DNA of 64,000 nt from Lachnospiraceae bacterium (GTDB lineage Bacteria > Bacillota > Clostridia > Lachnospirales > Lachnospiraceae), in the NCBI GenBank assembly GCA_017399445.1, contig JAFQCM010000127.1, positions 1 through 64,000 on the forward strand. The letters run 5' to 3'. Made by a program: the position numbers and the translations under genes. Positions 46,791 to 49,659 of this stretch are shown piece after piece; within the stretch, counting starts at the first letter, position 1; each line of letters opens with the position of its first letter. The notes under the pieces are model-generated. The model searched no databases, was not told the DNA's origin, and saw only the letters and a program-made list of their open reading frames with translations.

Positions 46791-48017
46791 CTATTTATTG
46801 TTCTTTTCAATTTCTGCAAGTTTCATTGCGCGCACCTTTAATGGAAGTCCAAATAAAGTGATGAAACCGTCAGCATCGTGGTGATCATATAATTCACCAG
46901 TGGTAAAGCTTGCTAAAGATTCGCTGTATAAAGAATATGGAGAAGTGGTTCCAGCTTTGATAATGTTTCCTTTGTAAAGTTTGAATTTCACTTCACCAGT
47001 AACATATTGCTGAGTAGATTCTACAAAAGCCTGTACTGCTTCACGAAGTGGAGTAAACCATTTTCCTTCATATACGATCTGAGCAAATTTATTTCCCATA
47101 TCCTTCTTAACTTCCATAGTAGCACGGTCTAATACTAATTCTTCTAACTGGTTATGTGCTTCCATAAGAATTGTTCCACCTGGAGTTTCATATACACCAC
47201 GGGATTTCATACCTACCACACGATTTTCTACGATATCTACAATACCAATACCATGTTTTCCGCCTAAAGCATTTAATTCAGTGATGATTTCAGAAACTTT
47301 CATGTTCTTTCCATTTACAGAAGTAGGAACACCCTTTTCAAAAGTCATGGTTACATATTCTCCTTCTTCTGGAGCTTTTTCAGGAGAAACACCAAGAACT
47401 AATAAATGATCATAGTTTGGTTCATTTGCAGGATCTTCTAATTCCAAACCTTCGTGGCTGATGTGCCAAAGGTTACGGTCACGGCTGTAACTAGAATCCG
47501 CAGAGAATGGAAGGTCAATACCATGCTGTTTACAGTATTCGATTTCATCTTCTCTAGACTGCATTGTCCAGATATCTGTCATTCTCCATGGAGCAATGAT
47601 TTTAATGTCTGGAGCTAATGCTTTGATTCCAAGCTCGAAACGAATCTGATCATTTCCCTTACCAGTAGCACCATGACAGATAGCAACCGCATTTTCTTTT
47701 CTTGCAACTTCTACTAATTTTTTGGCAATAGCTGGACGAGCCATAGAAGTACCAAGCAAATATTTGTTTTCATATACAGCACCAGCCTGTACACATGGAA
47801 CGATGAAATCATCACAAAATTCATCCACAACATCTTCTATGTACAATTTGGAAGCACCGGATAATTTTGCTCTTTCTTCCAGTCCGTCTAATTCTTCACC
47901 CTGACCACAGTTAATACAGCAGCAGATAACGTCATAATCAAAATGTTCTTTTAACCATGGGATAATTGCAGTTGTATCAAGACCACCTGAATATGCAAGT
48001 ACAACTTTTTCTTTCAT
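46791..48017 (-). CDS. argG: Argininosuccinate synthase
   Basis: ArgG joins citrulline and aspartate with ATP, the second-last step to arginine. The 408-residue protein starts KEKVVLAYSGGLDTTA with the PP-loop SGGLDT, and has GATGKGNDQIRFELG and SADSSYSRDRNLWHIS. The ATG at 48017 is set by CGGAGGTAATAATA; a longer in-frame start at 48065 lies at the expected transcription start and is excluded. No argH follows; it must lie elsewhere. Divergent from argC, with an ArgR site over its promoter. Confidence 0.97.
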   Translation of the reverse strand: MKEKVVLAYSGGLDTTAIIPWLKEHFDYDVICCCINCGQGEELDGLEERAKLSGASKLYIEDVVDEFCDDFIVPCVQAGAVYENKYLLGTSMARPAIAKKLVEVARKENAVAICHGATGKGNDQIRFELGIKALAPDIKIIAPWRMTDIWTMQSREDEIEYCKQHGIDLPFSADSSYSRDRNLWHISHEGLELEDPANEPNYDHLLVLGVSPEKAPEEGEYVTMTFEKGVPTSVNGKNMKVSEIITELNALGGKHGIGIVDIVENRVVGMKSRGVYETPGGTILMEAHNQLEELVLDRATMEVKKDMGNKFAQIVYEGKWFTPLREAVQAFVESTQQYVTGEVKFKLYKGNIIKAGTTSPYSLYSESLASFTTGELYDHHDADGFITLFGLPLKVRAMKLAEIEKNNK

Positions 48018-48073: not shown

Positions 48074-48102
48074 AATATACAGCATTCTGTATGAATATGC
48101 AA
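48074..48102 (-). promoter_or_regulatory. argG promoter with ArgR operator
   Basis: On the minus strand TTGCAT (48097-48102) and TATATT (48074-48079) are 17 bases apart. TGTATGAATATGCA (48088-48101, plus strand) fits the ArgR half-site pattern TGnATnnnnATnCA and overlaps the -35 box, so binding would block RNA polymerase. Confidence 0.75.
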
Positions 48103-48122
48103 GTAGAAAATTGAAGGGGAAG

Positions 48123-48335
48123 GTGTTGGAGGTAGGGAGGACTGGAGGGGCACCACTGTTTTCTTGAAAGACGAGGCAACACTACGACAAACTAACTGTT
48201 AACTACGACTAAGACTCTCGGGTGAGGCCTCGAGTCTAAGTCTCCGTAAACAGTGGATTTCGTCTCCGTTAAAAGCGCCTCTTTATGTCTTTCAAGAAAG
48301 CAGTGGTGCTCCTCCGTCCTTCCTACCTCCAACAC
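48123..48335 (+). repeat. Rod-like imperfect palindrome of about 213 bp, possible structured RNA
   Basis: Arms 48123-48172 and 48287-48335 are reverse complements except for three transitions and one bulged base. The start GTGTTGGAGGTAGG and the end CCTACCTCCAACAC are visible by eye. Inner pairings continue: GAGGC with GCCTC (48173-48177, 48277-48281), ACTGTT with AACAGT (48195-48200, 48249-48254), and GACTAAGACTC with GAGTCTAAGTC (48207-48217, 48232-48242). It is more GC-rich than its surroundings. No reading frame. The following 48336-48571 shows nothing I recognise except AT-rich sequence. Confidence 0.8.
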
Positions 48336-48571
48336 AGAGCAAAAACGGTAGAGAGTCGTAGACGGGGGTGGTTTGGGATATATGGAATATATTTAAGTAT
48401 ATATGTCTTAGTACATACGTTCTGGATATATAAAAAATAAACATTAGAAAGCATCAAATATATTCTTGAATAATACATGATATTGTACCAATATTTAGTA
48501 GCTGACCGTCCACCAATATCTAGCCAAGGACAGGAGCCAACATACATAATTTGTAATTTATACAAAACTAC

Positions 48572-48606
48572 TTGCATATTATGCATAAAAGATGTATAAT
48601 TATGCA
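48572..48606 (+). promoter_or_regulatory. argC promoter with two ArgR-type sites
   Basis: TTGCAT (48572-48577) and TATAAT (48595-48600) with a 17-base spacer form a near-consensus promoter. TGCATATTATGCA (48573-48585) covers the -35 box and TGTATAATTATGCA (48593-48606) covers the -10 box. The second fits TGnATnnnnATnCA exactly; the first is one base shorter. The leader is about 105 bases. Confidence 0.8.
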
Positions 48607-48711: not shown

Positions 48712-49659
48712 ATGAAAACGAAAATTTTTATTGATGGATCGGAAGGAACAACTGGTTTAAGAATACATGAACGGTTTCAGGGCAGAGATGATATTGAATT
48801 ATTAACAATATCTTCTGAGTTGAGAAAAGATGTCAATGAAAGAAAAAGATTAATTAATGCATCTGACATTACCTTTTTATGTCTTCCAGATGCTGCAGCA
48901 AGAGAGTCAGTAAGCCTTGTGGAAAATGAAAATGTAAAGATTATTGATACTTCTACAGCCCACAGAACAGAAGAGGGATGGGCTTATGGATTTCCAGAAT
49001 TATCAGAAAATCATAAAGAGGCTATTATAAAAGGGAAGAGAATTGCAGTACCGGGATGTTACGCATCTGGATTTATTTCATTGGTGTATCCATTAGTTCA
49101 AGGAGAAATTATGCCAGCAAATTATCCGGTAAGTAGTTTTGCTTTGTCCGGTTACAGTGGAGCAGGAAAGAAAACTATTGCAGTTTATGAAGGGGAAGGT
49201 AGAGACAAGGAATTGTCTTCCGGAAGAGAGTATGCATTGACACAGCAGCATAAACATTTAAAAGAAATGCAAAAGATTACCGGTTTGGAAAGAAAACCAT
49301 TATTTTCTCCAATTATTGATGATTATTACAGTGGTATGGTGGTGTCTGTACAGTTGTATGCAGATATGCTGTCCAAGAAAATGACACCAGAGTCTTTATT
49401 GGAATATTTTAGAGAGTTTTATCAGGGAAAACCATTTATCAAAGTAAGCAAAGCAGATGATGAGGTGGCAGCTAGCGGATTTATTGCAGGAAATGGTTTG
49501 TCTGGCTGGGATGGATTGAAGATTTATGTAACAGGAAATGAAGAACGTATTGTAGTTTCTTCACAGTTTGACAATCTGGGTAAGGGAGCTTCCGGTGCGG
49601 CAATCCAGTGTTTGAATTTAATGCTTGGATGTGAAGAAAGCAAAGGATTGAATCTGTAA
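48712..49659 (+). CDS. argC: N-acetyl-gamma-glutamyl-phosphate reductase (short type)
   Basis: ArgC reduces N-acetylglutamyl phosphate to the semialdehyde with NADPH. The 315-residue length and GSEGTTGLRIHERF start mark the short type 2 subfamily rather than the 345-residue type. The catalytic Cys116 is in VPGCYASGF. TAAGGAGAATGAAAG precedes the ATG. First gene of the argC-GNAT-argJ-argB-argD run. Confidence 0.95.
   Translation: MKTKIFIDGSEGTTGLRIHERFQGRDDIELLTISSELRKDVNERKRLINASDITFLCLPDAAARESVSLVENENVKIIDTSTAHRTEEGWAYGFPELSENHKEAIIKGKRIAVPGCYASGFISLVYPLVQGEIMPANYPVSSFALSGYSGAGKKTIAVYEGEGRDKELSSGREYALTQQHKHLKEMQKITGLERKPLFSPIIDDYYSGMVVSVQLYADMLSKKMTPESLLEYFREFYQGKPFIKVSKADDEVAASGFIAGNGLSGWDGLKIYVTGNEERIVVSSQFDNLGKGASGAAIQCLNLMLGCEESKGLNL

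What the first reader, a model, noticed from the sequence alone, without database searches (positions are those of the whole stretch)
48123..48335. A 213-bp rod-like palindrome between argG and argC that may be a structured RNA
The two 50-nt arms match except for one bulged base and three transitions. All three transitions would be G-U pairs if the plus strand were transcribed, and C-A mismatches if the minus strand were. Three cases are few, and one-sidedness by chance is about one in four, so this is a hint only. The inside pairs further (GAGGC/GCCTC, ACTGTT/AACAGT, GACTAAGACTC/GAGTCTAAGTC), so nearly the whole length folds into one rod. It is GC-richer than its surroundings, contains no gene, and matches no RNA family I know. 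It could be a new non-coding RNA, a retron-like or MITE-like hairpin, or a mobile palindrome.
Basis: partly seen in the sequence, partly recalled or inferred. Interest (0 to 1): 0.75.

Follow-up and report, generated by a model that had tools for sequence, protein, structure and literature searches.

The report
Large mobile DNA hairpin repeat family
The near-perfect hairpin between argG and argC is one copy of an apparently undescribed family of large, gene-free mobile DNA hairpins scattered through many Lachnospiraceae genomes, whose two arms change sequence from copy to copy yet keep matching each other.

Summary
The palindrome is real (48123-48335; RNA fold z -14.4, DNA fold z -14.0) but is not a single-copy RNA gene. 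It belongs to a repeat family: 22 covariance-model matches in this genome, 16/2/1/1 in four congeners, matches in 34 of 397 Lachnospiraceae genomes (up to 41 in one), none convincing in phages, plasmids or Rfam. A ~120-nt core with conserved asymmetric internal loops sits inside outer arms only ~61% identical between copies but ~91-95% self-paired within a copy. Pairs covary massively (720 two-sided changes, 95.8% paired). The RNA hint fails family-wide: G.T 89 versus A.C 100 mismatches, no strand bias, so pairing is kept at DNA level. All four congeners lack ~450 bp at argG-argC, and a second copy has a clean empty site: the elements insert. Many come as inverted pairs 240-370 bp apart, in intergenic DNA, often just past a stop codon; none was found to encode a protein. 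IS200-type (Y1) transposases are not associated (20/34 versus 199/363 genomes). Best reading: giant REP/MITE-like mobile hairpins moved by an unidentified enzyme that recognises folded DNA. New variant of a known kind.

The parts
48112..48562 (.). inserted segment (~450 bp, ends uncertain by about 15 bp) absent from four congeners
   Evidence: empty-site alignment with G001, G003, G004; G002 lacks it too but has other sequence there
48123..48172 (+). left outer arm (bulged T at 48143)
48287..48335 (+). right outer arm
48170..48289 (+). conserved core, covariance model R1 match, 132.6 bits, E 2.8e-32 in the window
   Evidence: model from 41 copies
48190..48198 (+). AACTAACTG, left side of the nearly invariant asymmetric internal loop
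   Evidence: alignment A1
48253..48261 (+). GTGGATTTC, right side of that internal loop
   Evidence: alignment A1
48210..48239 (+). apical stem-loop, stem covarying in the family
48336..48562 (.). unstructured AT-rich remainder of the insert; no second hairpin detected

Best explanation
This is one copy of a non-autonomous mobile DNA element built around a ~215-bp imperfect hairpin. Shown: it is multicopy, absent from orthologous sites in relatives, without a gene, often arranged as inverted doublets, and its pairing is preserved by two-sided changes with no preference for G.T over A.C. Inferred: a recombinase or transposase encoded elsewhere and not yet identified recognises the folded DNA (single-stranded hairpin or cruciform) through the conserved asymmetric loops and end motifs, and moves it into intergenic DNA, often just behind genes. 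The variable arms serve as a duplex clamp; they stay matched because unpaired arms are selected against, because template switching across the hairpin rewrites one arm from the other, or both. The window copy is a solitary, diverged one between the divergent argG and argC genes.
For: 20 DNA matches and 22 model matches in the own genome; 34 of 397 family genomes. Segment absent in four congeners; clean empty site for a 610-bp doublet. Inverted doublets. Arms 61% identical between copies but 91-95% self-paired, 46-50% when arms of different copies are matched. 720 two-sided changes with G.T = A.C. Conserved asymmetric loops. Hybrid copies with one half replaced by the complement of the other or of another copy. 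No gene inside.
Against: No mobilising enzyme found; Y1 transposases not associated. No target duplication recognised and exact ends not fixed. Some positions (hpf-secA, argG-argC) carry copies in several genera, which could mean long retention rather than movement. A strand-specific ssDNA fold should favour G.T slightly, which is not seen.
Confidence: 0.74

Rival explanations
1. A structured non-coding RNA or 3'-UTR element, transcribed in plus orientation from the upstream gene, protecting mRNA ends or ending transcription; copies spread but are kept for RNA function.
For: Strong conserved structure and loops. In 44 of 67 copies the left gene reads into the hairpin, core mostly 45-115 nt past its stop codon (P 0.014). 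At one site congeners have a terminator where this genome has a doublet.
Against: G.T not favoured over A.C on either strand; wobble pairs only 1.3% of cells; the window copy lies between divergent genes; no Rfam relative.
Confidence: 0.12
2. Passive palindromes: long inverted repeats created and homogenised by replication template switching, without any dedicated mobilising enzyme or function.
For: Symmetrised and hybrid copies; no G.T/A.C bias.
Against: The same core and asymmetric loops recur in many genera at unrelated sites; rewriting alone would erase the asymmetry; inserts are larger than the palindrome.
Confidence: 0.08
3. A locally selected regulator of the divergent argG-argC promoters.
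For: The insert splits a native inverted repeat TATGCAAG/CTTGCATA between the genes; a genome of another genus (G352) has a copy in the same gap.
Against: Absent from all four congeners; the G352 copy has the opposite orientation and another giant hairpin beside it; most copies lie at unrelated genes.
Confidence: 0.05

Closest known systems
REP sequences, BIMEs and REPINs (RAYT-associated), including CGTC-tagged REPs (PMC3733652, PMC3116915)
   Same: Imperfect palindromes, many copies, mostly intergenic and behind genes, frequently as inverted doublets, non-autonomous; the foot GGACGC reads CGTC on the other strand, the tag of a REP superfamily that also lacks a known transposase.
   Different: About 215 bp instead of 20-40 bp; several conserved internal loops; variable long arms; the CGTC-like foot is paired, not an unpaired tag; Lachnospiraceae (that paper lists other phyla); no association with Y1 transposases here.
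Bacterial MITEs and small mobile repeats such as RU/ERIC elements (PMC2759123, PMC2229807)
   Same: Short, intergenic, gene-free, multicopy, empty sites in relatives, imperfect inverted ends of doublets.
   Different: No target duplication recognised, no parent transposon found, and a conserved multi-loop fold instead of simple inverted ends.
Integron attC sites (from own knowledge)
   Same: Folded DNA with covarying stems and conserved unpaired positions as a recombination substrate is the working analogy.
   Different: No cassette array in the loci read; conserved parts are in the core, not at the two ends; integrases not searched.
Double-hairpin elements of fungal mitochondria (from own knowledge, not tested)
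   Same: Mobile, gene-free, paired hairpins with compensatory stem changes.
   Different: Mitochondrial and much smaller; no relation tested.

Membership tests
REP / REPIN (RAYT-mobilised) | Palindrome of 20-40 bp | tested here: not met
   Units fold over ~213 bp; REP size from PMC3733652
REP / REPIN (RAYT-mobilised) | Unpaired GTAG (or CGTC) tag at one end | tested here: not met
   No GTAG foot; GGACGC (CGTC on the other strand) is common but paired with GCTGTNC, and is absent from the window copy
REP / REPIN (RAYT-mobilised) | Associated Y1 (RAYT/IS200-type) transposase | tested here: not met
   PF01797 in 20 of 34 genomes with hairpins and 199 of 363 without, P 0.72; none beside copies examined
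REP / REPIN (RAYT-mobilised) | Inverted doublets in intergenic DNA, mostly behind genes | tested here: met
MITE | Short multicopy element without coding capacity | tested here: met
MITE | Filled and empty orthologous sites | tested here: met
MITE | Terminal inverted repeats and target-site duplication | tested here: inconclusive
   Outer ends of doublets are imperfect inverted repeats; no duplication recognised at the junctions read
MITE | Ends shared with an autonomous transposon | tested here: not met
Structured ncRNA family (Rfam-type) | Match to a described family | tested here: not met
Structured ncRNA family (Rfam-type) | Covarying helices that tolerate G.U rather than A.C | tested here: not met
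   covariation strong but G.T 43 vs A.C 55 and 46 vs 45
Structured ncRNA family (Rfam-type) | Transcript | not testable with these tools
   no RNA-seq available
Integron attC | Cassette array with an integron integrase | not tested
   no array context in the loci read; integrase genes not searched

The most novel reading that the evidence does not exclude
A new class of mobile DNA in Lachnospiraceae and other Clostridia: large multi-loop DNA hairpins, often used in pairs, that a recombinase outside the Y1/RAYT group recognises as folded DNA, with arms continually rewritten from each other so that sequence drifts while pairing stays near perfect. Different hairpin cores (the second family in G234, the other giant hairpin in G352) would share the same transposition ends.
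Probability: 0.35. Interest if true: 0.78.

Novelty: new variant of a known kind. Interest (0 to 1): 0.6.

Why it matters
Covariation is normally taken as strong evidence for a functional RNA. Here 107 distinct copies covary very strongly but without the G.U signature, so this is a clear case of DNA-level compensatory evolution and a caution for RNA discovery screens. It also points to an unidentified enzyme that moves folded DNA in gut bacteria, and offers genomes with 33 and 41 countable copies in which to look for it.

Tried and rejected
Rfam at gathering and lax thresholds: nothing relevant. Phages and plasmids by distant blastn: only a 30-nt chance hit. Viral contigs by pattern: zero, then one hit that the model rejects. 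Wide pairs 1-11 kb apart as ends of a gene-carrying transposon: only ordinary genes between. Gene clusters recurring beside copies: housekeeping and transporter genes, not transposases. Intrinsic terminators just upstream as a general target: 9 of 78 against 30 of 600 random windows, weak, although several single sites look so. IS200-type transposase association: none. A tRNA control for wobble frequency failed because the held loci carry almost no tRNAs. A second hairpin in the window's own insert: none. Literature searches found no description of this family in the open library.

Full report
OBSERVATION. Arms of 50 and 49 nt pair with one bulged T (48143) and three G.T mismatches. The 213 nt fold into one rod with -126.3 kcal/mol as RNA (z -14.4) and -67.8 as DNA (z -14.0), better than all 200 shuffles. 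It lies between argG (46791-48017, minus) and an argC-like gene (48712-49659, plus), is richer in G+C than its flanks, holds no gene and matches no Rfam family.

IT IS A FAMILY. A DNA search of the genome gives 20 matches. A degenerate core pattern finds 40 loci in assemblies of Lachnospiraceae and other Clostridia. G001 has the contig lengths of assembly RGIG2151 from a goat colon. A covariance model built from 41 copies finds 22, 16, 2, 1 and 1 matches in the five genomes of the genus and matches in 34 of 397 genomes of the family. With more candidates scored, two genomes give 33 and 41 matches.

ANATOMY. Each unit has (i) a foot, commonly GGACGCC opposite GGCTGTNC; (ii) outer arms of about 28-50 nt; (iii) a ~120-nt core of short stems separated by conserved asymmetric internal loops, above all AACTAACT opposite AGTGGATTT; (iv) a small apical stem-loop. 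Between copies of one genome arms are 61-62% identical and cores 78-81%. Yet an arm pairs 91% (G000) and 95% (G001) with its own partner and only 46-50% with the partner from another copy. The window copy lacks the usual foot and has a perfectly extended arm instead.

COVARIATION, BUT NOT RNA. On 107 distinct copies 95.8% of pair cells are standard, 31 of 32 pairs have two-sided changes, 720 cells are two-sided, and the covariation score is 0.602 against 0.193 for shuffles and 0.08-0.11 for slid partners. That alignment was fitted to the structure, which favours it; the unfitted alignment of 43 copies shows the same. A functional plus-strand RNA should tolerate G.U and reject A.C; a minus-strand RNA the reverse. 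Neither is seen: 43 versus 55 in the core, 46 versus 45 in the outer arms (P 0.47). The three G.T of the window copy were therefore chance, and pairing is maintained in DNA. A strand-specific single-stranded DNA fold would also be expected to favour G.T slightly (inference), so the lack of bias fits a cruciform, or arms rewritten from each other by template switching. Copies L008, L011, L012 and L015, in which one half is replaced by the reverse complement of the other half or of another copy's half, show that such rewriting or recombination happens. The conserved asymmetric loops argue that something reads the folded form, since rewriting alone would erase them (inference).

IT INSERTS. All four congeners have argG and argC side by side but lack the segment. 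In G001, G003 and G004 the sequence matching about 48111 is followed within a few tens of bases by that matching about 48563; G002 carries other sequence there. The segment is about 450 bp, of which 213 are palindrome; the rest is unstructured. It splits a native inverted repeat (TATGCAAG...CTTGCATA) that may belong to an arginine-repressor operator (the operator reading is inference). A second case: a doublet of about 610 bp in G001 is missing in G004, where the two flanks are directly adjacent. I could not recognise a target duplication.

DOUBLETS. Many copies come as plus-then-minus pairs 240-370 bp apart, sometimes of two divergent types. In G234 the partner is a different ~260-nt structured palindrome that also occurs alone in about ten places, and in G352 another long hairpin lies beside a copy, again in the argG-argC gap. 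Outer ends of doublets are imperfect inverted repeats.

PLACE. Copies lie between ordinary genes. In 44 of 67 the left gene is transcribed into the hairpin, the core lying mostly 45-115 nt past its stop codon (P 0.014). The hpf-secA gap carries copies in several genera. At one site congeners have an ordinary terminator where this genome has a doublet.

WHO MOVES IT. No gene lies inside, and no transposase beside the copies examined. Y1 transposases, the enzymes of REPs, are no commoner in genomes with the hairpin (20 of 34) than without (199 of 363). The over-40-genome searches use stricter filters and lose weak matches, so both counts are approximate. Copies were not found in phages, plasmids or viral contigs.

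COMPARISON. In lay-out it works like REP doublets, REPINs or MITEs (PMC3116915, PMC3733652, PMC2759123), but it fails tested definitions of REPs (size, unpaired tag, Y1 association), so it is not filed as a REP. MITE is the broadest label that fits, with ends, duplication and parent element unresolved. I found no description of this family in the open library; subscription papers and repeat databases could not be searched.

VERDICT. A real, widespread and apparently undescribed family of large mobile DNA hairpins; the RNA reading is disfavoured. The mechanism (folded DNA recognised by an unknown recombinase, arms kept matched by selection and/or template switching) is inference with moderate support.

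Noticed in passing
L182-L192 and L179-L180 (genome G234), near locus position 1500: A second, different family of ~260-nt branched palindromes with variable self-complementary outer arms, about ten copies; one (L187) has the same left terminus as the hairpin studied here, and in L179/L180 it follows that hairpin directly. No Rfam match.
   Followed up: partly
L105:1125-1365 (genome G352, argG-argC gap): Another long, nearly perfect hairpin with a different core lies beside a copy of this family, in the same intergenic gap as the window copy but in a different genus.
   Followed up: partly
L131:1705-2398 (genome G301): A 64-bp tandem repeat array (8 copies, then 2.7 of a related unit) lies between two inverted copies of the hairpin.
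   Followed up: no
L170-L171 (G338:C6:19000-46500): Five copies of a diverged subfamily within 27 kb, each between ordinary housekeeping genes.
   Followed up: no
L141:938-1072 (G000:C41): In this copy the core motif CTAACTA is expanded in tandem (ACTAACTACTAACTACTAACTACTAACTACG), enlarging one side of the internal loop.
   Followed up: no
window 48094-48106 and 48568-48580: A perfect 13-nt inverted repeat (AATATGCAAGTAG / CTACTTGCATATT) flanks the insertion; congeners have a shorter version with a short loop, so the insert sits inside a native palindrome.
   Followed up: partly
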